Below, one piece after another: positions 1 to 24,464 of a stretch of DNA of 24,635 nt; position 1 is the first letter of the stretch; the number at the start of each line of letters is the position of its first letter. The DNA lies in the IMG/VR virus record IMGVR_UViG_3300027839_000069, positions 1 to 24,635 of that record; one strand, written 5' to 3'. A program made the translations under genes and the position numbers. The DNA is from a virus. The notes under the pieces are model-generated. The model was not told where the DNA came from. It did not search any database and saw only the letters and a list, made by a program, of their open reading frames with translations.

Positions 1-3000
1 GAGGCAGAAAGGGCACCGTCCGCGTTAAGTAAAAACAGGGTGCGGTTCAATGTGAATTTCGAGCCGACAGAACCCGCCAAGGGCGAGCTTAGGATAACAG
101 AGCCTGGGGACGATACTAGGGCGCGGGATGAAAAAATGTGGATCAATGAAACAAACCCCGGCCTTGTCCACAGGCTTTTGTCTGACCCCCGATGGAAAAA
201 CCAGATTGACGATATGCTGGACAGTTATAACGAGAGGAGGCCAGGCGCACAGTTAAATAGAGAAGAATTTGTAAGACAATACACTGCACTCGTTACATCC
301 GTTACTCCATTGCAAGACCTTAGTGATCTGGGAATTTTGAATACTATCCAAGGTGCGGTAGCAATGCCCGGCGGTCTGGCACCCACGGATAACATACTTG
401 ACCTAGGAAGTTCTGCGGGCAAGAACTTGGTGCGAGCCCTAATGAGGTCTGGCGCACTTCCTTCTTCCTTGCAGGATAATGTCCATGCCGTCAGACGGCG
501 ATTCGTTGATACGATGAAAACCCGATTTGAAACATTGGATGGCAAGGTAGTAGAGCTTCTTCAAGCAACGCGACTTCCCGACAACATACAGCGTCAATAT
601 GTAGATGACATTGACGGATTATTCCAATTCATGGGTGAGGTAGCAATCCGGGGCGAGGATATGAACGCAGATCTTCCTGCCTTGTACGACCGCCCCGGCA
701 ACAGGATTATTATCAATCTTGCTGCAATTGATCCCAATGACATGGTTAGCGCAGAGGAGGTTGTAAAGCAGGCAGCCTTTCACGAAGGGCTACACGCGCT
801 GATAATCCGAGATCATTTAACCGAAGAAGAATTAAATGTACTATATGGTTTCGTTAGAGATAAAAATAACATAGTACCAAAGGAAATAGACGAGGAAGCA
901 TATAATGCACAATTAACGTGGTTTGAACGCTCCGTCGTGGCCCACAAGGATAGCGGGTTAGCTGAAGCGGACATCGAAAAAGAAGCCATCATTTCCCTGC
1001 TGGAAAACTTGACGCAACATCCCGATCTGTATGTAGAGGGAAAGAAAACCCGCACGATTGCCAAGGGTGTCCGGGGATTTCTTGAGGGGTTCGTGGATGC
1101 AGCCAAGGATTCTGACATCGTTGATGTTATGAGAATACTTGGACGAATAGAGCGTGGTGAAGTTGGCGAGCGCACGGCTGGATTTTTAGGTGATACCGAA
1201 TATACAAATGATTCGATAGTTAGATCTAATGATTTACTGCGTTATGCAAATCCCGAAGATATAAGAAAATTAAAAGCAGCCATTGTTTTACGCGATGCTG
1301 CTCCGTCTGATCAAATGAGAGAAGTCGAACAGGCGAAAATAGATGATATCTCTGATAAGATAGTTGCCAACCGTGGCATTATTCAGGAGTCTGCTCCACC
1401 ACCTCCCGATGCGGTGCAGGCCATTGAGAATCAGCGTCAGGCAATCGAACATTATCGTGCTACCTTTTCGGGGGAAGTCCCCCTATTAGGCTTGGATCAA
1501 AAGAATAGGGATAGTGAGGCGTATAAGCTGGCCCTAGATACATTCATGGAAATGCGTGGCAAAGATCCCAGATATGCCTACAAGATGCCTGAGCCATATC
1601 AAAAATTTTTCAACAAAATGTCGCCGCTGTCACCCAACCTGTTGAGTCTTGTTGCTGACGTTGAGAAGGCCGGAGTCATAACACCGTTGGATGGGGATGT
1701 TACAAGGAAAAGTCTTGAGGAAGGTGGCATACTCAGTGGGGACTATGTTAGAAGACCATGGTGGAGGGGTGGGGGAATTGAAGGAGATTTGTCTGAGGTT
1801 GACACCGAAACATTAAAAGATCAGCCCACCACTGGAGATAATATTAAGGATACGGTGGAGAATCTAAAGGGAAGTGTTGACGGATTACGCTATCTCTATT
1901 TGGATCGTCGCCAGTATATCGTAAAGCAAACCGATAGGCTTATAGCTGCACAGAACAGGGCGCAGTTAGATGCCGAAACATCTGCTCTGGTTATGTGGCG
2001 TAACTCCGACAATGCACTCAATTGGTTGTCCAGCTTGATGCTTAGGGGACCATTGTCTTATCTCGGAACAACGGTTGGATCCGGAAGGTTTGAGAATGCA
2101 CCCATCTATGACAATGATCTACAAGAAAAATACGGGGGTGATGGTCGTGTCCAGGGGCTAAACGACATAATTGCCCCGATCATAGACGCCGGTAGCCAAC
2201 AGGCTGCACTTACTTATGGCCTAATCAAGAGGGTGCGATGGACAAGGGATCGCCTTGAGAGCATCCAGTCGGCAACCGCAGGCGTGGATTCAGAAAATCT
2301 TAACCCCGAAACCAGACGTAAATTAAAATTATTTCAAGAATCCTACGAGGATATTAAAGTCGCCGTCAGGAAACTTACCGAAGCTCAGATGGATGATATT
2401 GTCCAAGAAATAGAAACAAAAGAAAGTAATAAAATTATTGTAGAGTTTTGGGATCGTTACAAGGCATACGATAATCACATGATCAAGATGTCTTACAATA
2501 CTGGCATGATCACCAGGGAGATACGTGACGAGTGGTTGTCTATGCCGTATGCGCCGTTCTATCGCGAAACAATGGAGAACGAAGATTTCCCGATAGGCTC
2601 ACAGGAGCAGATGGCAAAGCGTAGGAAGAATGTGGTAGAGAAGGCCCTAACGGAGAGCATGAAGCCGATAACGTCGAAGTTGTCGGATAGCATTATAACA
2701 AATACACAAGCATTGGTTCGTGATGCCATGATGAATACAGCGGTATCACGAACAGTTAGAGATGCTGTGGCCTTGGGGGAGGCAAGAAAAATAAATATCA
2801 GTGCCGTGGCAGCCTCTCTTGATGATCGCGTTGTGCGGGTTATGGAACATGGCGTCCCAACGTATTATCAGTTGGACGATGCACAGGTTGCTATGTCTGC
2901 AATGCTGCTGGGATTCAACCCCAAAAAGCAGTTGCAAAAATTATTTGGCGAACACAAACTCGGCAAATTTATGCAGACGGCTCTCACGAAAAGCTCTTCA

Positions 3001-7320: not shown

Positions 7321-7388
7321 AGCTTTCGGTGTGTGAGTTGAGCTAAAGGCCAACCACCGTCAGCGCGTCCCTTAGTAGCTTTCGGTGT
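7321..7388. repeat. Convergent junction with 12-bp direct repeat
   Basis: The + strand late genes end at 7300 and the - strand block ends at 7343. AGCTTTCGGTGT occurs at 7321-7332 and again at 7377-7388. Between them, the bases around 7331-7371 resemble 14192-14232, which lies at the other convergent junction. A weak hairpin (CACCG/CGGTG) can be drawn, but without a T-tract, so termination here is only suggested. Confidence 0.5.
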
Positions 7389-8527
7389 AGGGTCTCCCTC
7401 AGAGTTTCGATTGATCTCTCGACCGCCTCCTCCACCCCCTTAACGTCGGCTCCAGCTATACCAACCTCTTTCTGTCCACGGGTTACTACCGCATGATGGA
7501 AAAGTCTACCATGAGCCTTGATGAGTTCCACGAAATTATCAACGAATTCGTTTAACTCTAGCGAATCAGGTATAGAGACTTCCCCCGCCTTAACCATGGT
7601 TTCGGATCTGGGTCCGGTCCCAGTTCGTGGTACCTTGTGGCTGTCCTCCCCTGCTACAAGTGCCTTGATGTCAGGGGCACAACCAGATTCGATATCTGTA
7701 ATCCGATTTTTTATTTTAGGCATCCTCATCAATCTATTCCCCGCCTTTCGTATTCTCCTTTCTGTCCAATAAACAATATGGTAGCCAGATTCTTTGAACG
7801 CCTCGACGATAGTACTACCGCCCGCCCTGGCTTGACAGAAGTTTTCCTGCTTCTCTGTGAGCTTAATCTCCCAACCACGCCTCACTCTCCCCCCAGGCTT
7901 GGTGACTTCCCTAGGCTTGGTGACTTCGATATCCTTGTGAAAGCCTGCGGGTATGTCCCCCAACTCATTTACAAATTTCGCAATCTGATCTCTTATCTTT
8001 TTATGGTCTAATAGCCTGCGAGCGGCATTGCTAGAAAACGCAGGATTTGAAACGTTATAGGAATCAGTGTAAGCGTCAGCCCTGTTAGATCCCAAGGCCA
8101 TAAGCTCACAAAACGAGAGCTGTTTATCTGTGAGTGGCCGCTCCCTTGCCACCAGCTTGGCTAGGAGCGGATCAGCTTTCGCTGGCGTCTTGGCAACCTC
8201 CTTCCCTGCCATTCCCTGAAGTGCCTTAATCAGATCGCTAACGTTGATCGTATCATCATTATTGTTGGAACCCATAATCTTCTCCTCGGAATCCACGGTC
8301 TTCTCCTCCTTGTGATGCGCGTCGGTTGGAAGTCCCCCGGCTTTGGGGTGACAACCATTTTCTACATGGCTGGGATCAAGCATAGAGAAACTTAGTTTCT
8401 TGTTATCGGTTTCATCTAAGTGCCAGATACCACGACCACGATCCCAGTTTACAAACCTCCCAGCCTTGATTTTCTTGCCACATTTAATGCATGGCCCGCC
8501 ATACTTGGCCGCAATAATCAGGCTCAT
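7343..8527 (-). CDS. Zinc-ribbon protein with two terminase small-subunit-like repeats
   Basis: 394 aa from the ATG at 8527, which overlaps the previous stop as ATGA and has GGGAGG ten bases upstream; a GTG at 8545 is less likely. The N-terminus carries C13-x2-C16 and C59-H60, probably zinc binding. Residues 132-186 (PLTDKQLSFCELMALGSN, AYTDSYNVS, SSNAARRLL, KIRDQI) match the helix-turn-helix repeat of small terminase subunits. Residues 223-279 (LTEKQENFCQARAGGST, AFKESGY, RLMRMPKIKNRI) repeat the same pattern. The C-terminal 100 residues are helical. The repeats suggest DNA binding, with either a packaging role or a regulator derived from TerS. A separate single-repeat TerS-like gene exists at 22586, so this one may not be the packaging subunit. 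Confidence 0.75.
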   Translation of the reverse strand: MSLIIAAKYGGPCIKCGKKIKAGRFVNWDRGRGIWHLDETDNKKLSFSMLDPSHVENGCHPKAGGLPTDAHHKEEKTVDSEEKIMGSNNNDDTINVSDLIKALQGMAGKEVAKTPAKADPLLAKLVARERPLTDKQLSFCELMALGSNRADAYTDSYNVSNPAFSSNAARRLLDHKKIRDQIAKFVNELGDIPAGFHKDIEVTKPREVTKPGGRVRRGWEIKLTEKQENFCQARAGGSTIVEAFKESGYHIVYWTERRIRKAGNRLMRMPKIKNRITDIESGCAPDIKALVAGEDSHKVPRTGTGPRSETMVKAGEVSIPDSLELNEFVDNFVELIKAHGRLFHHAVVTRGQKEVGIAGADVKGVEEAVERSIETLRETLHRKLLRDALTVVGL

Positions 8528-9120
8528 AGCAGGGCGACCTCCCACTCATAGCCAGACATGAGGCTTGAGTAATCGAAATGTTTACCAAGGGCATCCACAA
8601 TGCTCACTTGGTCTGGCTCAAATCCCAGCACCTCTCCAGGGGGGTGGCTATAATAGCAAATGCTATTAATGGTGGTCTTGTTAAGTGCGAAGTCCCTGCC
8701 CGTTGTTGTCAGCCTCCACAGGCCGGACGATCTTTTCTTTGGATCTGGATTCTTCGGGCTTTTTTCAATCAGCCCCCAGTACCGAAGCTTCGCATAGTCA
8801 CCACCACCATTGATGGCCCCCGAAGTAGGTATGTGAACGTACTCCCCATCCTTGCCATGAAATACCATCCAGACCATCACCCGTGCATACGATCCAATCT
8901 TATAGGCGTATACCTTGCTATTGGCACCGCAATGATGGCACTTGGAGATCGGCTCGTTAGACATTATTCGCAAGCGATCTAGATCAGAAAAATATTCTTT
9001 GGTATCAAAAAGATCCCGGAAGAATTCATCCTGTTCATTTTTTTGATCATGCGAATTAAACATGGATAGCTGGCTCGAACAGCTTTCGGCTTGAGTGAGC
9101 CATTCTGTTTCCTCATCCAT
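8524..9120 (-). CDS. Conserved phage protein, zinc-knuckle plus winged-helix-like region
   Basis: 198 aa, start preceded by GGGGAGGAAGG. A CHHCGA knuckle near residues 61-66 is followed by a region of the form GGGDYAKLRYWGLIE, then SGLWRLTTTGRDFA, which reads like the recognition helix and wing of a winged-helix domain. The C-terminus (EVLGFEPDQVSI, KHFDYSSLM) also follows a pattern I recall from phage hypothetical proteins next to replication genes. DNA binding is inferred. The stop overlaps the start of the TerS-repeat protein by four bases, so the two are coupled. A GC-rich hairpin just upstream (9148-9192) may separate it from the genes transcribed before it. Confidence 0.7.
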   Translation of the reverse strand: MDEETEWLTQAESCSSQLSMFNSHDQKNEQDEFFRDLFDTKEYFSDLDRLRIMSNEPISKCHHCGANSKVYAYKIGSYARVMVWMVFHGKDGEYVHIPTSGAINGGGDYAKLRYWGLIEKSPKNPDPKKRSSGLWRLTTTGRDFALNKTTINSICYYSHPPGEVLGFEPDQVSIVDALGKHFDYSSLMSGYEWEVALL

Positions 9121-12246: not shown

Positions 12247-14000
12247 TGGAACAAGTTCGTAATGTGGTATCTGGTCTTGGTAGTGGACAACACAAGAAAC
12301 AATGTCCAGAGTGTCAGGGTGATAGGTCTGGTAAAAACCGAAAGGATCGTCCTCTCTCCATCAGGATAGATACTGCGGGGGTTAAGTACAGGTGTCATCA
12401 TTGTGGGATGGAGGGTGGTTGGGACCATAACGACGACCTTGATTTCAATTTACTCACAGCACCATCCCCTCCGAATGGGGAAAATTTCCCCCTCAATATT
12501 GATCGTGGATCTACGAACAGCACGGCGCTTGATTACCTGAGATCCAGGCACATAACCGATGAAGTCATCAAGAGTCATGCGATCCTTGGTACCTATCGGT
12601 TCAATGGCAAGACGGTTCCGGCAGTTGGGTTCCCCTACGGGGATGGCACTGTTGTTAACGCTGTGAAGTGGAGGTCTGCCGACAAAGAGAAACGGTTTAG
12701 TCAAGAAAATATATGTGAAGATTTTTTCAATCTGGATTCTTATGTCGATGGCAATGATGTCTTAATCTGTGAAGGCGAGATTGATGCACTCGCTTGGATA
12801 AGTGCCGATCTCCCAGACAACGTGACCGTTCTTTCTATCCCCAACGGCGCACCAGCCAAGGTTCGGGACGGAAAGATTGATCCGAAGGATGACAACAAGT
12901 TTAGATATATCTGGCGTGCGAAACGACAGTTGGATTCTGCGCCAAGGATTATTTTGAATACCGATCTTGATGATCCCGGAAAAGCCCTCCAAGAAGAGAT
13001 CATTCGCAGGGTAGGTAGTACAAAGATTTGGACGATAGATCTTGGTGGCCACAAGGATGCTTCGGAAGCCGTGGACGCCAAGGGTGCGGCGTACCTTGAG
13101 CAACAGTTGGAATACTGTGAGCGGATCCCAACCATTGGGTTGCATGGCGTAGAAGAATTTGTCGATTCGTTTGTAGATCTGTATGACAATGGCCAAATGA
13201 AGGGAGCCTCCACTGGCTTGGCCTCGTTAGATAGATACATACAAATCCCCTTGGGTATGCTTACGGTAGTCACAGGCTTTCCCGGCAGTGGAAAGTCGGA
13301 TCTCGTTGATCAGATTTGCATCAACCTAGCCAAATCACATAACTGGAAAACGGTTTATTGTTCTTTCGAGAAGCCACCTGAGTTGCACATGGCTCAACTG
13401 GCACAGAAGATCTGTAACCGCCCGTTTTTCGACGGCCCGTCCACTCGCATGAGTACTGAAGAGCGTGACTTCTCCGCCGATTGGATTAAAGAAAACTTCA
13501 TGTTCATGGACAGTCGGCGTGACAGTCCGAATGACATTAAGGGCATCCTCTCTACTGCTAGTGCGGCAGTAATGAGAATGGGTTGTAGGATCTTAGTGAT
13601 AGATCCTTACAACCATATAAAGCTCAACCATGGTCAGCGTGAAACGGATGCCATTTCGGATATGCTAACTTCCGTACAGCAATTCGCCCGTGACCATGCG
13701 TGTCATGTATTCTTTGTGGCCCACCCGACGAAGCTTCCTCCCGATAGGCGGGGAGACAAGAAGGTTGTCGTTACGGGCCATGATGTGGCTGGCTCTGCGG
13801 CATGGTTTGCAAAGGCTGATATTGGCATGACTGTTTGGCGTCATCAGCGTGATGAGGATCCCCCAGAATGCCACGTCTGGAAGACCAGATGGTCTTGGAT
13901 GGGCAAGAACGGTGTCTGTCCCTTGCATTTCGATCCCATCACCGGACGTTGGCAGGACTTCAGCCCTGCGCTTGATGATTACGATTGGGATTTTGACTAG
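12237..14000 (+). CDS. T7 gp4-like primase-helicase
   Basis: 587 aa, with GAGGAGG seven bases before the ATG. A zinc-binding region (C23-x2-C26 and C53-x2-C56) is followed by a Toprim domain with CEGEID at 178-183 and N-T-D-L-D-D around 241-246. The helicase half has Walker A GFPGSGKS (347-354), CSFEKPPE, Walker B ILVID with D456, and VAHPTK, as in SF4 DnaB/gp4 hexameric helicases. It therefore should both unwind the fork and lay primers. The protein ends in an acidic, aromatic tail (DDYDWDFD), similar in kind to the T7 gp4 tail that binds DNA polymerase; that role is inferred. No DNA polymerase gene is in the window. One copy of the 17-bp palindrome lies in its coding region at 12476. Confidence 0.93.
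   Translation: MQVVEQVRNVVSGLGSGQHKKQCPECQGDRSGKNRKDRPLSIRIDTAGVKYRCHHCGMEGGWDHNDDLDFNLLTAPSPPNGENFPLNIDRGSTNSTALDYLRSRHITDEVIKSHAILGTYRFNGKTVPAVGFPYGDGTVVNAVKWRSADKEKRFSQENICEDFFNLDSYVDGNDVLICEGEIDALAWISADLPDNVTVLSIPNGAPAKVRDGKIDPKDDNKFRYIWRAKRQLDSAPRIILNTDLDDPGKALQEEIIRRVGSTKIWTIDLGGHKDASEAVDAKGAAYLEQQLEYCERIPTIGLHGVEEFVDSFVDLYDNGQMKGASTGLASLDRYIQIPLGMLTVVTGFPGSGKSDLVDQICINLAKSHNWKTVYCSFEKPPELHMAQLAQKICNRPFFDGPSTRMSTEERDFSADWIKENFMFMDSRRDSPNDIKGILSTASAAVMRMGCRILVIDPYNHIKLNHGQRETDAISDMLTSVQQFARDHACHVFFVAHPTKLPPDRRGDKKVVVTGHDVAGSAAWFAKADIGMTVWRHQRDEDPPECHVWKTRWSWMGKNGVCPLHFDPITGRWQDFSPALDDYDWDFD
12476..12492. promoter_or_regulatory. Palindrome copy inside primase-helicase gene
   Basis: TGGGGAAAATTTCCCCC, identical to the copies at 20057 and 21384 but located about 7.5 kb away within coding sequence. 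This remote copy could act as a roadblock-type site or be a chance match; identity over 17 bases makes chance unlikely. Confidence 0.6.
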
Positions 14001-18844: not shown

Positions 18845-20032
18845 TTAGAAATAAAAGTCTTGGTTCTGAGCATAGTGTCTTATGAATTCCTCCTCTTTTT
18901 GAATGTCCTCATTGAGCGCTAGTGCCGCACTCACGCACGCCACCGAAGCCTCCCGATCAATTCTATTTACAAACTTAATTATATTATTGATCTGGCTTGC
19001 GCCCCCAAGACTTTGATAAGTGCTACGCTTTTTATCCAAGCGCGATACGAGCATACAAATAACACTGCACAACATTGTCTTTCCGTTGGGAGTCATATCG
19101 TTTCTGAGTTGATCTATCTTGTCACTGTACTTGTCGGGATCCGCAAGCATCTCATCAAGATCCCCGAAATTTTTTCCCGCTCTGTACGTTGCGAACAACT
19201 CGGCAGTGCCCCGGAATCCAATTATTCCTAGTATCATGGCCTCGGATACAGGTGAGTCCATGTCCAAGCCCGTCTTTAATAAATTACTGGCTTGGAAAAC
19301 TGTACTAGGGGCACAGAAGGACTTGCCACTAGCCTCGTCATTCTGGGTGAAGAGGAACTGGTCGCCTTGGTACTTGAGAATACTCGACACCAGCGGGTGC
19401 AACTCACCCTTGTGGTGTTCCAAGAAACCCTTGACGGTGGCTCGCACCTGTAGGATGCACGCTCTCCTAATCAGATCACTGTGCATCGCGAACGCCCCTG
19501 CTCCATCATCCGCGCCGTTGGTTGTGCCGATGAAGTAAGTGTGGGGCGGCACTTGATAGTTGGTGCCCAGAGTTCTCTCATTAAAAAGCTCTGACCAGAT
19601 CTTGAAATTCTCTGGTTTCTTACCTATCTCTTCAGCGATAACGGTACAGCGGATGTCTGCCCACTCTACGTCCTTGGTCCAACTCGCATCTGCTCCCGGC
19701 AGTGCAGTCGTGACGTATCTGTCGTAGGTACGATCCCCGATGGCGGGCATCGCGAAATCTTCTGGATCGTAACAGGTAGCATTGAAGATCTGCATACCGT
19801 ACTCACCGACCCCCGGCCTACCACCAGAGTTGCAATTCACGATTGGCTTGGGCTCGCCATCGTTGTGACGGCGAGAGATTTCTAATACCGCAGCCTTTGC
19901 GGCAGTAGTCTTTCCGCCCCCCGGTGGCCCCGATAGAATTACCGGATAGCCCTCCATTTCTAACTGGACTGCGGCCTCCGGCACCTCACTGGGTTCTATG
20001 AATTGCCTAAGGTGATACTCTGCTTCTTTCAT
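18845..20032 (-). CDS. MoxR/CobS-like AAA+ ATPase
   Basis: 395 aa, GGGAGGAGAGAGG before the ATG. Walker A GPPGGGKT at 35-42; Walker B-like CTVIAEEIG around 129-137, where the usual Asp-Glu is Glu-Glu; sensor 1 FIGTTNGADD around 167-176 with N172; and paired arginines R189-R190 in the arginine-finger area. This matches the MoxR/CobS group of AAA+ ATPases, which act with VWA-domain partners such as RavA-ViaA or CobS-CobT. The partner here is the HExxH/VWA protein at 16406-17707. A copy of the palindrome sits 25 nt upstream of the start, suggesting that the whole three-gene block is switched by that regulator. Confidence 0.87.
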   Translation of the reverse strand: MKEAEYHLRQFIEPSEVPEAAVQLEMEGYPVILSGPPGGGKTTAAKAAVLEISRRHNDGEPKPIVNCNSGGRPGVGEYGMQIFNATCYDPEDFAMPAIGDRTYDRYVTTALPGADASWTKDVEWADIRCTVIAEEIGKKPENFKIWSELFNERTLGTNYQVPPHTYFIGTTNGADDGAGAFAMHSDLIRRACILQVRATVKGFLEHHKGELHPLVSSILKYQGDQFLFTQNDEASGKSFCAPSTVFQASNLLKTGLDMDSPVSEAMILGIIGFRGTAELFATYRAGKNFGDLDEMLADPDKYSDKIDQLRNDMTPNGKTMLCSVICMLVSRLDKKRSTYQSLGGASQINNIIKFVNRIDREASVACVSAALALNEDIQKEEEFIRHYAQNQDFYF

Positions 20033-20056: not shown

Positions 20057-20073
20057 TGGGGAAAATTTCCCCC
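20057..20073. promoter_or_regulatory. Palindromic operator-like site, copy upstream of the AAA+ gene
   Basis: TGGGGAAAATTTCCCCC: GGGGAA and TTCCCC arms around AAT. Located 25 nt before the ATG at 20032 and immediately ahead of its ribosome binding site. Confidence 0.75.
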
Positions 20074-20113
20074 TCCCAGACCTCTCTTCTTTGGAAATAT
20101 AATTATTAGTTAA

Positions 20114-20356
20114 TCATTTATCAACTCCTTGTCGCTTGGCACCTACCCCATCAAGATCAATAAGTATTTCGTTCATTCTTTTTATTACTGCTCTTATACG
20201 TTTATGTAATCGGGCCTCATCCTCGTCATCCCACAAATGAAACCTCCCCTTCTCTTCACAACATGGACTCCTTGTGGCATTAAGATGTTCTGCTACAGAT
20301 GTCATGTCTTGAATAGAATCCTCAAAGCAAGTCGTCATCCAATCTGATATTGCCAT
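20114..20356 (-). CDS. Unassigned small protein
   Basis: 80 aa. Acidic N-terminal helix (MAISDWMTTCFEDSIQDM), a Cys pair (SPCCEEKG) near the middle and a basic helix (ARLHKRIRAVIKRMNEIL). No family recognised. GGGTGGGA lies eight bases before the ATG and contains half of the dispersed palindrome (TTCCCAC on the + strand at 20363-20369), without the other arm. It lies upstream of the AAA+ gene in the leftward block. Confidence 0.6.
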   Translation of the reverse strand: MAISDWMTTCFEDSIQDMTSVAEHLNATRSPCCEEKGRFHLWDDEDEARLHKRIRAVIKRMNEILIDLDGVGAKRQGVDK

Positions 20357-20436
20357 AATTTTTTCCCACCCCTGGGGCGTAGCCTGAAGTTCAAATTAAT
20401 TCTCTGCATAGGTTTATTTTTTTAATTCTCCTGTTG

Positions 20437-20619
20437 TTATCTTCGTTGCCATTCGTATGCCTCCCATCCTATCTCTTCAATTAGAATTTTTAGCGGTGAA
20501 TAGTCCTGTGTTTCACGAGTGCCTAAGTTAATTTTTAGTTGCCAGGTATTGAGCTGTCGCCTGTTCCTCTCAATTTTTTGCCGGATCTTCGACAGCCTTC
20601 TCTCCTCAATTAACGTCAT
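20437..20619 (-). CDS. Unassigned small basic protein
   Basis: 60 aa. The first half is a strongly basic helix (RRLSKIRQKIERNRRQLNTW) and the second half ends EEIGWEAYEWQRR. Such a short, basic, aromatic-ended protein might bind nucleic acid or a host protein; this is a guess. The start lies 4 nt after the previous stop, and the ribosome binding site GGAGGAG overlaps the last codons of that gene. The 19-bp repeat at 20519 is inside this coding region. Confidence 0.6.
   Translation of the reverse strand: MTLIEERRLSKIRQKIERNRRQLNTWQLKINLGTRETQDYSPLKILIEEIGWEAYEWQRR
20519..20537. repeat. 19-bp repeat, copy 2 of 2
   Basis: Identical to 17777-17795, but here coding for W-Q-L-K-I-N-L-G-T of the 60-aa protein on the - strand. 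Sharing between a coding and a noncoding place suggests a recent copy event or a common protein-binding site. Confidence 0.6.
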
Positions 20620-20623
20620 CGTC

Positions 20624-20857
20624 CTACTCCTCCGTTGCGGGGGGAATATTTCCCCCCTGATTTTTACTTCTTTCTACTGCGAGATCAATCAATTCGTACA
20701 CCATGTACTCAGCATCTCTGATCGCATCTTTGGATTCCTCACTCAGCTTGTTGGCCGCGTAAGAACCCAGAGATAATTCAGCCTCCGCTCTCAGGTTGAC
20801 CGCCTTTTGGATGTGTAACATGAGCTTGTCCACGCCATCCTCAGATAGATGCGACAT
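20624..20857 (-). CDS. Unassigned small protein ending in a palindrome
   Basis: 77 aa, with CAGGGAGGG before the ATG. Acidic and helical (VDKLMLHIQKAVNLRAEAEL, ESKDAIRDAEYMVYELIDLAV). The last ten residues GGNIPPATEE are encoded by a palindrome copy (20639-20657) plus the ribosome binding site of the next gene, so the operator-like sequence is translated here. No family recognised. Confidence 0.65.
   Translation of the reverse strand: MSHLSEDGVDKLMLHIQKAVNLRAEAELSLGSYAANKLSEESKDAIRDAEYMVYELIDLAVERSKNQGGNIPPATEE
20639..20657. promoter_or_regulatory. Palindromic operator-like site
   Basis: GGGGGGAATATTTCCCCCC: perfect 8-bp arms around TAT. It lies 20 nt upstream of the start at 20619, within the 3' end of the preceding gene. 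Confidence 0.75.
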
Positions 20858-20872
20858 AATCCCTCCCTGTTG

Positions 20873-20889
20873 TGGGGAAATTTTCCCCC
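20873..20889. promoter_or_regulatory. Palindromic operator-like site
   Basis: TGGGGAAATTTTCCCCC, 16 nt before the ATG at 20857, directly before its GGGAGGG. Followed on the + strand by GGTTACAAGATTACT, which also follows the copy at 21762 with one change. Confidence 0.75.
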
Positions 20890-20925
20890 GGTTACAAGAT
20901 TACTCCTACCTCGACAACAACAACC

Positions 20926-21129
20926 TCAGGTGTGAGCGTAGCCGTCCGTCTCCACGCCGAACCACATTCTCCCGGTGTTTAGCATGACGGCATCTCCTCC
21001 GAACTCGGGTTGGATCTCGACGTTATCGGTCAAGCCATGGCGTTGACGCAAGATGTCGATAGCCTCTCGCTGTGCCTCGGTGATCTCACCGTCTTTCACC
21101 TCTCGTGAATTGGGCCAGAAAATACGCAT
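20926..21129 (-). CDS. Conserved small phage protein
   Basis: 67 aa, AAGGAAG before the ATG. The strings EAQREAIDILRQRHGL, VEIQPEFGGDAVM and GRMWFGVETDGYAHT form a pattern I recall from short proteins in many phages. Probably an alpha/beta fold; no catalytic residues apparent and no known role. It lies 3 nt after the 21133 gene, so the two are one transcription unit. Confidence 0.75.
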   Translation of the reverse strand: MRIFWPNSREVKDGEITEAQREAIDILRQRHGLTDNVEIQPEFGGDAVMLNTGRMWFGVETDGYAHT

Positions 21130-21132
21130 TGC

Positions 21133-21369
21133 CTACTCTTCCTTTTTCTGTAAGGGGAATCCGATAGTGAGGCCATCAGTATCATAGCCACCATCAAAAT
21201 CCACAGTGACTTTGAGATCGGCCAACCACCGTTCTGCTTCCTCACGTTGTGAGGAGTGCCATACCCGCAATACGCTCCACGTTTCGACGGGTCCGGTGCC
21301 GTAGACGAGCATGATCTGGTCCATCATGCCTGTCTCTAGGCGAATGGGTTCCTTCTTGTTCTTGGGCAT
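21133..21369 (-). CDS. Unassigned small protein
   Basis: 78 aa. AAGGAG lies eight bases before the ATG, and a palindrome copy lies directly before that. The N-terminus is basic (PKNKKEPIR), then RVWHSSQREEAERWLADLKV reads as a helix of the kind seen in small phage proteins that follow a strand with V-W/R. The C-terminus has YDTDGLTIGFPL. I do not recognise a function. Confidence 0.65.
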   Translation of the reverse strand: MPKNKKEPIRLETGMMDQIMLVYGTGPVETWSVLRVWHSSQREEAERWLADLKVTVDFDGGYDTDGLTIGFPLQKKEE

Positions 21370-21383
21370 AGTGCTTTACTCCT

Positions 21384-21400
21384 TGGGGAAAATTTCCCCC
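21384..21400. promoter_or_regulatory. Palindromic operator-like site
   Basis: TGGGGAAAATTTCCCCC, identical to the copies at 12476 and 20057. It is 15 nt before the ATG at 21369 and touches the AAGGAG ribosome binding site, so a bound protein or an RNA hairpin would affect that gene directly. Confidence 0.75.
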
Positions 21401-21410
21401 GGTTATAAAT

Positions 21411-21599
21411 TTACTTCTCACCTTCCTCGCGTTCCCGCATGGCTTCATCTTGAGCGTCAGAGTAGCCGCTCTCTCCGTAGTATTCGGCACTACTCATCCC
21501 GTCATGCTCCTCCTGAAAGCGGGCCTCTAGGGCACGGCATTTCTCGACCACGCGCTTGATCGGGTCCACTTCCCTTTCGTCTGTGTACTCACCTTCCAC
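21411..21599 (-). CDS. Small acidic protein
   Basis: 62 aa, GTG start with AAGGAG seven bases upstream. Very acidic and charged (DEREVDPIKRVVEKCRALEARF, then a Ser/Tyr-rich region and REREEGEK). Probably a mostly helical accessory protein. No family recognised. The stop runs into the repeat following the palindrome at 21384. Confidence 0.65.
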   Translation of the reverse strand: MEGEYTDEREVDPIKRVVEKCRALEARFQEEHDGMSSAEYYGESGYSDAQDEAMREREEGEK

Positions 21600-21612
21600 T
21601 AGAAATCTCCTT

Positions 21613-21738
21613 TCAGAACAATTCCTCTGCGATCCAGCAAACGAGTAAGATTAGGAACAAGAGAACAAACACCACCACAACAAATGGTTCATCGGCAGCA
21701 GCTTCGGGCTGTGTGAATCCAGAAAGCTGTCCATACAT
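21613..21738 (-). CDS. 41-aa single-span membrane protein
   Basis: Too short for a usual gene-finder cut-off. It reads MYGQLSGFTQPEAAADEPF, then a 17-residue hydrophobic segment (FVVVVFVLLFLILLVCW) and a short acidic end IAEELF. GGGGGAGG lies six bases before the ATG, and the stop is followed at once by AAAGGAG, the ribosome binding site of the next gene; both signals are strong evidence for translation. A palindrome copy lies 24 nt upstream of the start. N-out or N-in cannot be told. It could be a superinfection or lysis-timing peptide; that is speculation. Confidence 0.7.
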   Translation of the reverse strand: MYGQLSGFTQPEAAADEPFVVVVFVLLFLILLVCWIAEELF

Positions 21739-21761
21739 AATGCGCCTCCCCCTTAGTGGTA

Positions 21762-21777
21762 GGGGGAAAATTCCCCC
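21762..21777. promoter_or_regulatory. Palindromic operator-like site, 2-nt centre
   Basis: GGGGGAAAATTCCCCC: 7-bp perfect arms with a 2-nt rather than 3-nt centre, the only such copy. It is 24 nt before the ATG at 21738. Confidence 0.7.
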
Positions 21778-21805
21778 CGGTTACAGGATTACTTCCGCTT
21801 CTTTC

Positions 21806-22357
21806 TCATTCCCCATACTGTTCCAGTTCCAGTGCTTTCCGGGGCGACATACCCGCCTTGGTTGCCAGGACAGATGTGTCGGTGCGCTGATCCATGCACC
21901 TGTCGTGATCGGTGACTTGCACAAGGTTGCCGTTTATCATGGCCCATGCACGGCGCACATCCCTGCCGCATCCCTTGCACACATACTCTGCGGGTATCCT
22001 GCGTGATCCCCTTTTATGGGGGGAATTTTTCCCACTACGCTCGGGTCTGTGTGACCCTTCGCTGAACTCAGCGACAGAACGTGACGCCTCGGTGGCACGA
22101 TGGTCATGGTCGGCAAGGGCAGTGTTGCCCTGCGTATACTGACCCGTCGTGGCCAGAACCTTCTTCTGGTTCTTTTCCACCCGCTCCCATGGCTTGACCA
22201 GTGGTATCGGCAGGAGATGTTCGATCCTGCGTAGCCACTTGCTGTAGGCTTCCTCGTAAGTGTCGCACCTAACAGCCATGAAGTAGACGGCGGCGTCTAT
22301 GCGCTTGGCGCAGATGGGAACACTCGCAGCTATCGCTGCGTTGATCCCGTTAGCCAT
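21806..22357 (-). CDS. Unassigned protein with C-terminal zinc-binding region, first gene of leftward operon
   Basis: 183 aa, GGAGGGGGA about nine bases before the ATG. The N-terminal 60 residues (CAKRIDAAVYFMAVRCDTYEEAYSKWLRRIEHLLPI) are helical. The middle is polar. Near residues 126-156 are C-K-G-C and H-D-R-C with intervening strands (DVRRAWAMINGNLVQVTDH), which may bind zinc. It is the first gene downstream of the divergent control region, so it is probably expressed early. A palindrome copy at 22019 is within its coding sequence. No family recognised. Confidence 0.65.
   Translation of the reverse strand: MANGINAAIAASVPICAKRIDAAVYFMAVRCDTYEEAYSKWLRRIEHLLPIPLVKPWERVEKNQKKVLATTGQYTQGNTALADHDHRATEASRSVAEFSEGSHRPERSGKNSPHKRGSRRIPAEYVCKGCGRDVRRAWAMINGNLVQVTDHDRCMDQRTDTSVLATKAGMSPRKALELEQYGE
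22019..22035. promoter_or_regulatory. Palindromic operator-like site inside a gene
   Basis: GGGGGAATTTTTCCCAC, a hybrid of the G4 and GTGGG versions of the palindrome. It codes for S-G-K-N-S-P on the - strand. Not near a start codon. Confidence 0.6.
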
Positions 22358-22394
22358 CCTGTAGTCCCCCTCCTCAAGGGTCGTTCATTTCCAA

Positions 22395-22411
22395 GTGGGA
22401 ATTTTTCCCAC
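22395..22411. promoter_or_regulatory. Palindromic operator-like site in control region, leftward side
   Basis: GTGGGAATTTTTCCCAC, with arms extending to 9 bp as AAGTGGGAA/TTCCCACTT (22393-22413). It is 38 nt upstream of the start at 22357 and about 50 nt downstream of the predicted leftward promoter. Confidence 0.8.
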
Positions 22412-22469
22412 TTACTGTGGCGGGCGCACCTCTCCTGCGAGGCCACTCGCCTTCTTTATCCTACATATA

Positions 22470-22498
22470 AATATAACCGATTTCAAGATGTTATGCAA
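22470..22498 (-). promoter_or_regulatory. Candidate leftward sigma70-type promoter
   Basis: Reading the - strand, TTGCAT (22498-22493), a 17-nt spacer and TATATT (22475-22470). The -10 matches 5 of 6 consensus bases, the -35 only 3 of 6. It would start transcription near 22463 into the operon beginning at 22357. Confidence 0.5.
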
Positions 22499-22531
22499 GG
22501 TATAGTGGACCCTGATACAGAAATCCTTTTA

Positions 22532-22548
22532 GTGGGAAAAATTCCCAC
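22532..22548. promoter_or_regulatory. Palindromic operator-like site abutting the TerS promoter
   Basis: GTGGGAAAAATTCCCAC, arms 8 bp when extended (22531-22549). The -35 box of the rightward promoter begins at 22551, two bases away, so an occupied site could block or recruit RNA polymerase. Confidence 0.8.
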
Positions 22549-22550
22549 TG

Positions 22551-22579
22551 TTGACCTGTCGAATACCTAATGGTAGAGT
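22551..22579 (+). promoter_or_regulatory. Candidate rightward promoter for the TerS-like gene
   Basis: TTGACC, a 17-nt spacer and TAGAGT (22574-22579). Transcription would begin about at the ATG (22586), giving a leaderless or nearly leaderless message; no clear Shine-Dalgarno sequence precedes that ATG, which agrees. Confidence 0.5.
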
Positions 22580-22585
22580 GGTGGT

Positions 22586-23023
22586 ATGACTAATCCTAAT
22601 GGTGTTAGCCCGAAACAATCGGCGTTCGCTGCGTTTGTAGCTGAAGGTGACAGCTACACGGATGCGTATCGCAAGGCGTATGATGCGTCGAAGATGAAGG
22701 ATCAAGTGGTGTGGAATGCTTCGTCTCGACTGGCGAAGAATGAGAAGGTGCAGGGGTACATCACGGCACTGAAGAAGAAGGATGCAACAGCAGTAGAGGC
22801 GCACCAGAAACTCAGCAAAGACTGGGTCGTGCAACGGTTACAGGATGAAGCGCAGAGTGAGAAGAACCCCGCCGCTACCCGCGTGCGTGCGCTTGAGTTG
22901 TTGGGCAAGACCAGCGGATTGTTCGATGAGTCTACCCATATCACGTTTGAGAATCGCACGCCTGAGGATGTGGAGAAGGAGCTTGTAGAGAAGCTGGCGA
23001 TGCTGTTCCCAGTGAAGGCGTGA
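22586..23023 (+). CDS. Terminase small subunit-like protein
   Basis: 145 aa. The N-terminal part has the TerS helix-turn-helix pattern: VSPKQSAFAAFVAEGDSY, AYRKAYDAS, VWNASSRLAKNEKVQGYI. A helical middle (LSKDWVVQRLQDEA, then NPAATRVRALELLGKTSGLF) and an acidic C-terminal helix follow. Small subunits recognise the packaging start on phage DNA and load the large subunit. No large terminase gene follows on the + strand in the window: downstream is a 630-nt noncoding region with repeats. It may therefore be either the packaging subunit beside its pac/cos region, or a TerS-derived regulator like the two-repeat protein at 7343-8527. Confidence 0.8.
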   Translation: MTNPNGVSPKQSAFAAFVAEGDSYTDAYRKAYDASKMKDQVVWNASSRLAKNEKVQGYITALKKKDATAVEAHQKLSKDWVVQRLQDEAQSEKNPAATRVRALELLGKTSGLFDESTHITFENRTPEDVEKELVEKLAMLFPVKA

Positions 23024-23067
23024 TAGCAGGGTTAGTGTAGGTGTTGGGAAGCGTGTTAAAATCCCAA

Positions 23068-23084
23068 GTGGGAATTTTTCCCAC
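23068..23084. promoter_or_regulatory. Palindromic operator-like site
   Basis: GTGGGAATTTTTCCCAC, identical to the copy at 22395. It lies 45 nt after the TerS-like stop and 24 nt before the first iteron. Confidence 0.75.
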
Positions 23085-23107
23085 ATGATTTGACCTAACC
23101 CCTGTCG

Positions 23108-23220
23108 TGACAGCCGTACCTCGTACATGACCCCTGACAGCCGTACCTCGTCGCTTGGGGGGTGCAGACTGCGGATAGGTGGGAAATTTTCCCCCAAAAA
23201 ACTTGACAGCCGTACCTCGT
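23108..23220 (+). repeat. Three iteron-like repeats
   Basis: TGACAGCCGTACCTCGT occurs exactly at 23108-23124, 23135-23151 and 23204-23220, all in the same orientation, the first two 27 nt apart. A palindrome copy lies between the second and third. Directly repeated 17-mers in an intergenic region are typical of initiator or terminase binding sites. Confidence 0.85.
23179..23195. promoter_or_regulatory. Palindromic operator-like site among the iterons
   Basis: GTGGGAAATTTTCCCCC, a hybrid copy. It ends eight bases before TGACAGCC of the third iteron. Confidence 0.7.
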
Positions 23221-23264
23221 CGCAGGCCCCCCCCTGGGAAGGCCCCCGGAGGGCCGCCGGAGGC

Positions 23265-23472
23265 TGCTGTTAGATATAATCATCGCGAAGAATGAGCGTC
23301 CTTCAGCTTTTAAATGCTGTTAGATATAGTCAGGCGTAGGGAAGTATGGCGTAGTTCAGTCATACTTCGCTCGCATCTCCTTGTGTTAGTCGCGAGTAGC
23401 GATGTGCTGTTAGATATAATCATCGCGAAGAATGAGCGTCCTTAGGCTGTTAAATGCTGTTAGATAAAAGTC
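23265..23472 (+). repeat. Two ~66-bp direct repeats with four 12-bp boxes
   Basis: The first 39 bases of the unit, starting TGCTGTTAGATATAATC, are identical at 23265-23303 and 23405-23443; the similarity then continues to about 23331 and 23472. Within them TGCTGTTAGATA occurs four times, at 23265, 23315, 23405 and 23455. The first and third are followed by TAAT, giving exact TATAAT -10 boxes, but no -35 is present. Confidence 0.9.
23341..23368. other. Hairpin between the direct repeats
   Basis: GAAGTATG (23341-23348) and CATACTTC (23361-23368), perfect 8-bp inverted repeat with a 12-nt loop. It lies in the 70 nt that separate the two long repeats. No T-tract, so not a terminator. Confidence 0.6.
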
Positions 23473-23654: not shown

Positions 23655-24464
23655 TTACTCGGCTATGGGTGGGATATAGAAGGCGTCCAAGGTCTGGTCG
23701 TCTTCGGTGGCAGTGACAAAGCGTCTCGCGCTCTGTAACTGGTTACGGCTCGCAGCGATCACATCCGCGAGAGTCTGATAAACCTCACCGCTCCGAGCCT
23801 TGCTGATCAGCACTGATAAATTCTCAGTTCTGCCTCTGGGGCCGATGGTGATTTCGCACCTCTCGGTTCCGTCGTCGTCTGTGGTTACCACGTAGGTGTC
23901 GGCGTAGTCGGCACCCAGTGCATGGATGAGACCCGCCGAATCGGTTCCGATGTGAACCATCAACCGACTCTCGGCGCATCGGGCACGCTTCAGAGCCGCC
24001 CAAATCTCAGCCTTCTCGGACCAACTGAGAGCGCTGGTCGGCTCCACCGTCGCGAGAGCAACAGCGGGATCGGAGGCCAAGAGTTCAAGCCAGTCGGATA
24101 CGGCCCGCCTGCGCTGGCGCACGCCTTTGCTCCCGTTCTTACGGGCCGCCTCGGCGGTTCCTCGGGGGGAGTGGATCCCCGTGGGGTAAAGTTCTAGAAG
24201 CCGCTCGTACTCAATTCTCGCGGCGTTTCCTGCCCGGATCTTGAGGGCCTTGAAAGAGTGACAGACCATCTCCAAGGTGTCGGCGCTTCCGGCCCCGGTC
24301 CTTATAGCCGTCGAGCCCCAAGCGTGCATCAACGCGACGAAGGAAGCGCGGGCCGTTTCGGTTGCGCCTTGCGCCTCCCGCGAGGTGACGGAGGCGGTGC
24401 CGATTTGGTCGGCACACTTGTTGACCGCCCGACTGATGGCGGCGGTGAGTTTGGAAAGTGACAT
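23655..24464 (-). CDS. GC-rich orphan protein, unassigned
   Basis: 269 aa, AGGAG about eight bases before the ATG. The base composition is clearly higher in G+C than the rest of the window, and the codons use C or G in third position much more. The N-terminal 120 residues are Ala-rich helices, ending in a basic stretch (RKNGSKGVRQRRRAVSDW). The second half contains strands around HIGTDSAGLIHALGADYAD, VVTTDDDGTERCEITIGPRG and a final helical, acidic end. I recognise no domain. It is bounded by two terminators and a leader with two hairpins, so it forms its own transcription unit and may have arrived from elsewhere. Confidence 0.7.
   Translation of the reverse strand: MSLSKLTAAISRAVNKCADQIGTASVTSREAQGATETARASFVALMHAWGSTAIRTGAGSADTLEMVCHSFKALKIRAGNAARIEYERLLELYPTGIHSPRGTAEAARKNGSKGVRQRRRAVSDWLELLASDPAVALATVEPTSALSWSEKAEIWAALKRARCAESRLMVHIGTDSAGLIHALGADYADTYVVTTDDDGTERCEITIGPRGRTENLSVLISKARSGEVYQTLADVIAASRNQLQSARRFVTATEDDQTLDAFYIPPIAE

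What the first reader, a model, noticed from the sequence alone, without database searches (positions are those of the whole stretch)
20057..23195. A dispersed 16-17 bp palindrome family placed at gene starts: candidate phage-wide regulon
Ten copies of G-K-GGGAA-N3-TTCCC-M-C lie at 20057, 20640, 20873, 21384, 21762, 22019, 22395, 22532, 23068 and 23179, plus one at 12476. Six of the leftward genes and the TerS-like gene have a copy within about 15-45 nt before their start codon, often touching the ribosome binding site. Arms are one helical turn apart, as expected for a symmetric dimer. Known parallels in layout are mycobacteriophage L5 stoperators and the start-associated sequences of Cluster K phages; this sequence matches neither. 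Whether it works as DNA operator, roadblock or RNA hairpin is inference.
Basis: partly seen in the sequence, partly recalled or inferred. Interest (0 to 1): 0.88.

Follow-up and report, generated by a model that had tools for sequence, protein, structure and literature searches.

The report
Phage operator palindromes that switch together
A family of aquatic phages carries a dozen or so copies of a short palindrome just before its early genes, and related phages have swapped every copy for a different palindrome at the same places, together with one hypervariable neighbouring gene that is probably the protein reading them, so the array looks like a private gene-control code that each phage keeps distinct.

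Summary
The palindromes are real: 11 copies in the window, against 0.33 expected by chance. They are not one fixed sequence. About 22 related contigs and one cultured cyanophage each carry their own family (GGGGAAAnTTTCCCC, GGGTGAAAnTTTCACCC, CTATAGAAAnTTTCTATAG, TGGGTAAnTTACCCA and others) at matching places: abutting the TerS -35 box, in the early-operon leader, twice after TerS, between operon genes and inside the primase linker. All copies within a genome agree. Two contigs with about 95% identical flanks differ at every palindrome compared. Such concerted change requires a sequence-specific trans-acting factor. Half-sites vary independently, with no stem covariation, favouring a symmetric DNA operator over an RNA hairpin. 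A hypervariable gene convergent with TerS (window 23655-24464) does: it is replaced when the motif switches, while TerS and TerL stay 99% identical. Its predicted fold has no known relative. Most likely it is a repressor at a stoperator-like array, in phages with no detected integrase. The kind is known from Cluster A mycobacteriophages; the palindromic design, regulator family and wholesale switching are new. Repression itself is inferred.

The parts
12476..12492 (.). palindrome copy inside the primase-helicase gene, in the variable linker
   Evidence: Kept in most relatives although the linker peptide differs; in L019 (G011) it is read in another frame; in L014 it reads GGTGAAAATTTCACC
20057..20073 (.). 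palindrome copy before the AAA ATPase gene (18845-20032, -)
   Evidence: core 26 nt upstream of the start in window, G001, G002, G003
20640..20656 (.). palindrome copy before 20437-20619 (-), overlapping the 3' end of 20624-20857
20873..20889 (.). palindrome copy before 20624-20857 (-)
21384..21400 (.). palindrome copy before 21133-21369 (-)
21762..21778 (.). palindrome copy with a 6-bp centre, before small ORF 21613-21738 (-)
22019..22035 (.). palindrome copy inside the first operon gene (21806-22357, -), between its helical part and Zn-ribbon-like end; an internal copy is also seen in relatives
22395..22411 (.). palindrome copy in the leader of the leftward operon
   Evidence: centre -132 to -193 from the TerS start in relatives with other arm sequences
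22532..22548 (.). palindrome copy abutting the -35 box of the TerS promoter
   Evidence: centre -46 from the TerS ATG; same place in relatives with other arms, or one helical turn upstream in L009 and L076
23068..23084 (.). first palindrome copy after TerS
   Evidence: +480 to +490 from the TerS start in most relatives
23179..23195 (.). second palindrome copy after TerS
   Evidence: +563 to +637 from the TerS start in most relatives
22551..22585 (+). TerS promoter TTGACC-17-TAGAGT directly before the ATG (apparently leaderless)
   Evidence: conserved in about 22 contigs, TTGACC-17-TATAAT in L077
22451..22486 (-). leftward early promoter TTGAAA-17-TAGGAT
   Evidence: GGTTATATTTATA conserved in relatives
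22586..23023 (+). TerS-like gene
   Evidence: PHROG terminase small subunit, 3e-15
23655..24464 (-). hypervariable gene, candidate palindrome-binding regulator
   Evidence: tracks the motif while TerS and TerL do not; AlphaFold pLDDT 91; no PDB, BFVD or Pfam match
21806..22357 (-). first gene of the leftward operon, Cys-rich C-terminal part

Best explanation
The palindromes are DNA operators: two inverted half-sites about one helical turn apart around an A/T-rich centre, bound by a symmetric dimer encoded by the phage. The likely binder is the hypervariable gene at 23655-24464. Bound dimers at the divergent TerS/early-operon control region, in the operon leader, between operon genes and inside the primase would shut down or hold back early genes, by blocking initiation at the two sigma-70-like promoters and elongation elsewhere, as stoperators do. 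Regulator and sites switch specificity together, so each phage type responds only to its own regulator. Shown by computation: site reality, conserved positions, concerted genome-wide switching, half-site independence, and association of one gene with the motif. Inferred: binding by that gene, dimerisation, repression rather than activation, and the selective reason for switching.
For: Copies far above chance. Positions conserved relative to TerS across unrelated arm sequences. All copies within a genome agree and differ between genomes. L076/G032 and L077/G033: flanks 92-96% identical in DNA, TerS 99.3% and TerL 98.9%, yet GGGTGAAAn versus CTATAGAAAn at syntenic sites, and the block holding the regulator gene has no nucleotide similarity. 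L074/L075: TerS identical, flanks about 94-97%, sites caught with one half of each type. Half-site independence: 75 one-sided versus 8 symmetric deviations; 896 matched pairs versus 900.4 +/- 4.8 with halves shuffled, p=0.84. One genome (G026) has the same asymmetric site in five of six copies. The site before TerS moves by one helical turn in two genomes. Within equal TerS distance, same-motif pairs have more similar regulators (0.115 versus -0.008, nominal p 2e-7) but not more similar TerL (0.858 versus 0.859, p=0.91). A basic block (window residues 104-120) is conserved across clades only when the motif is the same (38% versus 17% elsewhere; no such excess among L074-L077).
Against: No binding data. 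The regulator model matches no known DNA-binding fold. Genome pairs are not independent, so the p values are nominal. Some same-motif pairs have regulators only about 25% identical. The cyanophage MinM2 has the array (GGTTCAGnCTGAACC) but no detectable regulator homologue. L070 has mixed sites. Tight spacing to start codons in MinM2 (many 29-30 nt) could also fit a translation-level role. Each site can fold as an RNA hairpin.
Confidence: 0.6

Rival explanations
1. DNA operators as above, but read by another phage or host protein; the hypervariable gene merely sits in a replacement hotspot.
For: MinM2 has the array without a detectable homologue. G030 and G033 are partial contigs, so other genes could not be compared. 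RHH is also fast-evolving.
Against: TerS, winged-helix and TerL do not follow the motif. A host factor would have to change between phages with 99% identical TerS and TerL.
Confidence: 0.25
2. RNA hairpins in front of ribosome binding sites, recognised by an RNA-binding protein or controlling translation or mRNA processing.
For: Sites sit just before SD sequences, in gaps too short for promoters. Hairpins of 5-7 bp are predicted. Tight spacing to the start codon in MinM2.
Against: No covariation between half-sites. Copies lie deep inside the primase gene, upstream of the -35 box of a leaderless gene and after TerS, where a leader hairpin is useless. Position shifts by one helical turn. No Rfam match.
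Confidence: 0.1
3. Same regulator and sites, but the protein is an activator (or switches early to late) acting from next to the -35 box.
For: The site abuts the -35 box upstream (centre about -46) with helical phasing, an activator-like position. No integrase or HTH_3 repressor was found, so no lysogeny needs maintaining.
Against: Most copies have no recognisable promoter near them. Intragenic and between-gene copies suit a block to elongation better.
Confidence: 0.25
4. Mobile or recombination-spread intergenic cassettes (like REP/RPE palindromes or T4 PeSL cassettes) with no regulator.
For: Longer repeated cassettes around some sites, for example 44 nt in the window; sites lie in linkers and gene gaps.
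Against: Positions are conserved while sequences are replaced in concert at all places in otherwise 95% identical DNA; mobility does not explain this.
Confidence: 0.04

Closest known systems
Cluster A mycobacteriophage stoperators and immunity repressor (L5, Bxb1, Trixie)
   Same: 20-30 sites per genome, mostly not at promoters; genome-specific motifs; motif distance tracks repressor distance; repressor blocks elongation (PMC6550527)
   Different: Those sites are 13-bp, asymmetric and oriented with transcription, bound by a monomer with two domains (PMC9283540, title and abstract), in temperate phages with graded motif change. Here sites are palindromes, sit at gene starts, switch wholesale, and no integrase was found.
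Cluster K Start Associated Sequences (SAS/ESAS)
   Same: Short repeats just before start codons in the non-structural genome half, often in operon gaps; ESAS has inverted repeats (PMC3203893)
   Different: SAS is a fixed non-palindromic GGGATAGGAGCCC that contains the SD, 3-7 bp from the start. Here the SD is separate, the element is palindromic and sequence-variable, and copies also lie in coding DNA and after TerS.
SPbeta repeated element SPBRE with master repressor MrpR
   Same: Dispersed repeated element across a phage genome bound by one phage-encoded master repressor (PMC10516654)
   Different: Temperate prophage; MrpR has a tyrosine-recombinase fold. The candidate here is a helical protein with a small beta part and no such match.
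phiC31 conserved inverted repeats bound by the c repressor (recalled, not verified here)
   Same: Dispersed palindromic repressor sites in intergenic regions
   Different: Recalled only; no paper was found in the library. phiC31 is temperate and unrelated.

Membership tests
Cluster A-type stoperator system | many sites per genome, mostly outside promoters | tested here: met
   11 copies in the window; most with no promoter-like site nearby
Cluster A-type stoperator system | site motif co-varies with the repressor across genomes | tested here: met
   Same-motif pairs have more similar candidate regulators; TerL control does not. That the candidate is the repressor is not shown.
Cluster A-type stoperator system | asymmetric 13-bp sites in one orientation | tested here: not met
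   Sites are palindromes with independent half-sites
Cluster A-type stoperator system | repressor blocks transcription and gives superinfection immunity | not testable with these tools
   needs experiment
Cluster A-type stoperator system | temperate life style | tested here: inconclusive
   No PF00589 or PF00239 integrase in 10 records while controls rang; records may be incomplete
Cluster K SAS | non-palindromic 13-bp element carrying the SD, 3-7 bp from the start codon | tested here: not met
RNA leader hairpin family | compensatory changes in the stem | tested here: not met
   Pair matches equal shuffled halves, p=0.84; no Rfam hit
N4-type hairpin promoters with virion RNA polymerase | phage-encoded single-subunit RNA polymerase | tested here: inconclusive
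   PF00940 finds nothing, but no control rang either; giant protein has only LPD38
intrinsic terminators | GC stem followed by a T run | tested here: not met
   Only the copy at 20639 scores as terminator-like as a whole hairpin

The most novel reading that the evidence does not exclude
Non-lysogenic phages use a hypervariable regulator plus a dozen cognate palindromes as a swappable identity code: a resident phage's regulator silences incoming phages of the same type (or coordinates only its own genome), and selection to escape cross-silencing drives wholesale replacement of regulator and sites between near-identical genomes.
Probability: 0.3. Interest if true: 0.92.

Novelty: new variant of a known kind. 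Interest (0 to 1): 0.78.

Why it matters
It gives a natural experiment in regulon rewiring: genomes 95% identical in their flanks but with every compared operator changed, and genomes caught half-way with one old and one new half-site. It makes testable how a regulator and a dozen sites change specificity without passing through a dead intermediate, and whether immunity-like control exists in phages without lysogeny. It also offers a new family of candidate DNA-binding proteins of varied specificity and an annotation rule for a large group of uncultured aquatic phages.

Tried and rejected
TerS-like, winged-helix and RHH proteins as specificity determinants. N4-like hairpin promoters: no RNA polymerase found in the giant protein, but the PF00940 search had no ringing control. 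Known RNA families. Terminators. Bacterial host by TerS: no relative in genome contigs. Regulator homologue in phages: none. MinM2 first operon gene MM2_92 against the regulator profile: nothing. Regulators of the other motif types against the profile: weak hits at best (p 0.002-0.006, low probability), none for L081/L082. AlphaFold of the L065 regulator is unusable (pLDDT 40), though its order of helices and strands resembles the window model. Foldseek and VIA on the window model gave no convincing relative; absence there proves nothing. Pelagiphages HTVC027P and HTVC023P, phages 023Pt_psg01, DSL-LC04, CRP-901 and NrS-1: no palindrome family. Scan of viral contigs for GGTTCAGnCTGAACC: the listed loci hold single sites only, taken as background. 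The alignment used a wrong region and is not used. L070 was meant as a blind prediction of motif from regulator and came out ambiguous.
Full report
OBSERVATION. All eleven palindromes are in the window at the stated coordinates. Shuffles give 0.33 hits where the window gives 15, overlapping registers included. The reversed pattern gives none. De novo search for split palindromes ranks this family first in the window, where shuffles reach one copy. One copy (21762) has a shorter centre, and three copies lie in or across coding DNA.

RELATIVES. Searches with the AAA ATPase, TerS-like and primase proteins fetched about 30 related viral contigs; complete or long records were read. Every contig of the closest group (TerS about 90%) has the same palindrome type at the same places, as far as each contig reaches: core 26 nt before the AAA ATPase start (window, G001, G002, G003), before TerS, twice after TerS, and in the primase. 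The primase copy lies in a variable linker. In L019 the same DNA motif is kept in a different reading frame, and in L014 it has become GGTGAAAATTTCACC. The DNA, not the peptide, is therefore what is kept.

CONCERTED SWITCHING. In more distant contigs the sequence changes but the layout does not. Types found: GGGGAAAn, GGGGAAAAn (two bases longer), GGGAGAAAn, GGGTGAAAn, CTATAGAAAn, TGGGTAAn, TGGTAAn, GGAAAAATn and TTCATTAAAnn, each with its inverted repeat. Centres fall at -43 to -51 from the TerS ATG (or -56/-57, one helical turn further, in two genomes), at -132 to -193, at +480 to +490 and at +563 to +637, with some sites missing or displaced in some genomes. Copies in one genome agree. TerS itself is 95-100% identical among L074-L077, which have four different types.

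THE TWO TELLING PAIRS. L076 (G032) and L077 (G033) have 92-96% identical DNA over most of the early operon and TerS and 94% on the TerL side; TerS is 99.3% and TerL 98.9% identical as protein. Their palindromes are of different types, and at one syntenic site the flank is near-identical up to the swapped palindrome. The block right of TerS that holds the hypervariable gene shares no nucleotide similarity at E 1e-5. L074 (G030) and L075 (G031) have identical TerS and 94-97% identical flanks, and several sites carry one half of each type, as if specificity were changing half-site by half-site.

DNA OR RNA. Within genomes, deviations from the consensus are one-sided 75 times and symmetric 8 times. 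Half-sites match each other no better than shuffled halves (896 versus 900.4 +/- 4.8, p=0.84). In G026 the same asymmetric version recurs in five of six copies. Sites also occur where a leader hairpin would make no sense: deep in the primase, after TerS, and upstream of the -35 box of a promoter whose transcript would start at the TerS ATG. No Rfam family matches. This favours a symmetric DNA operator. RNA hairpins can form, so RNA is disfavoured, not excluded.

PROMOTERS. The TerS promoter, TTGAC-N17-TA(T/A)AAT-like directly before the ATG, is conserved in about 22 contigs, and the palindrome abuts it when present. A leftward promoter with a conserved GGTTATATTTATA element serves the early operon; its leader carries a palindrome. 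Operon-internal copies sit between a stop codon and the next Shine-Dalgarno sequence with no room for a promoter, which suits a roadblock or stoperator.

WHICH PROTEIN. TerS and the winged-helix protein are excluded as determinants by constancy across motif types; RHH is disfavoured. A gene of 254-344 aa, convergent with TerS and present in the contigs that extend far enough (none was found in L080), is hypervariable: 22-52% identity among L074-L077, and it is the one replaced in the G032/G033 pair. Within a given TerS distance, same-motif genomes have more similar versions of it (0.115 versus -0.008, nominal p 2e-7) and not more similar TerL (p=0.91). Pairs are not independent, so the p value is a guide only. 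A basic block at window residues 104-120 is conserved across clades only when the motif is the same. AlphaFold gives a confident, mostly helical model with a small beta part (pLDDT 91) without PDB, BFVD or Pfam relatives.

BREADTH AND HOSTS. TerL relatives among cultured phages include pelagiphages and cyanophages. Synechococcus phage MinM2, like the equally long Planktothrix records that share its genes, has the same early-operon architecture (MoxR ATPase, VWA, DUF3150, twinkle primase) and over 20 copies of GGTTCAGnCTGAACC, many centred 29-30 nt before starts. No homologue of the regulator is seen there. Pelagiphages and others lack an array. No integrase of the tyrosine or serine families was found in ten records.

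COMPARISON. Cluster A mycobacteriophages have genome-specific stoperators that follow repressor divergence (PMC6550527), so the kind is known. Here the sites are palindromic and sit at gene starts as Cluster K SAS do (PMC3203893), the regulator family is undescribed in the libraries searched, and switching is wholesale between near-identical genomes.

VERDICT. Operator array with a co-evolving specificity factor: near certain. DNA-level symmetric operator: about 0.8. Factor is the 23655-24464 family: about 0.65. Repression rather than activation: about 0.6, untested.

Noticed in passing
L012 +2800 to +2814 from TerS, L071 6330-6390, L077 6896-6909 and others: A second palindrome family (about TAGAT-n-ATCTA) lies 2.4-3.6 kb right of TerS in the relatives, next to TerL, and does not switch with the first family.
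   Followed up: partly
window 23108-23127, 23135-23154, 23204-23223: Repeats of TGACAGCCGTACCTCG right of TerS, also in relatives (GAGGTACGGSTGYC); possible pac/cos or origin iterons.
   Followed up: no
window 23265-23326 and 23405-23466: 62-nt direct repeat, 95% identical, in the gap between TerS and the hypervariable gene.
   Followed up: no
window 22551-22588: TerS-like gene appears leaderless, with the ATG at the expected transcription start in about 22 contigs.
   Followed up: partly
window 7343-8545: A second protein with terminase-small-subunit-like stretches (PHROG 51, Pfam Terminase_2).
   Followed up: no
G031 30163-30453 (-) and G030 1449-1703 (+): Small Cys-rich gene beside the hypervariable gene is also strongly diverged; the two may form a replaceable module.
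   Followed up: no
L102 (MinM2) 12188-40523: Over 20 copies of GGTTCAGnCTGAACC before genes of cultured cyanophages, which would make the system testable in culture.
   Followed up: partly
L070 497 and 664: Sites of mixed type (GGGAGAAA/GGGGAAA), perhaps another genome in mid-switch.
   Followed up: partly
G001, window and G007 leader sites: Some operon-internal sites share a longer cassette GGAAGTAATacCATAACCG before the palindrome, reaching into the upstream stop codon.
   Followed up: no
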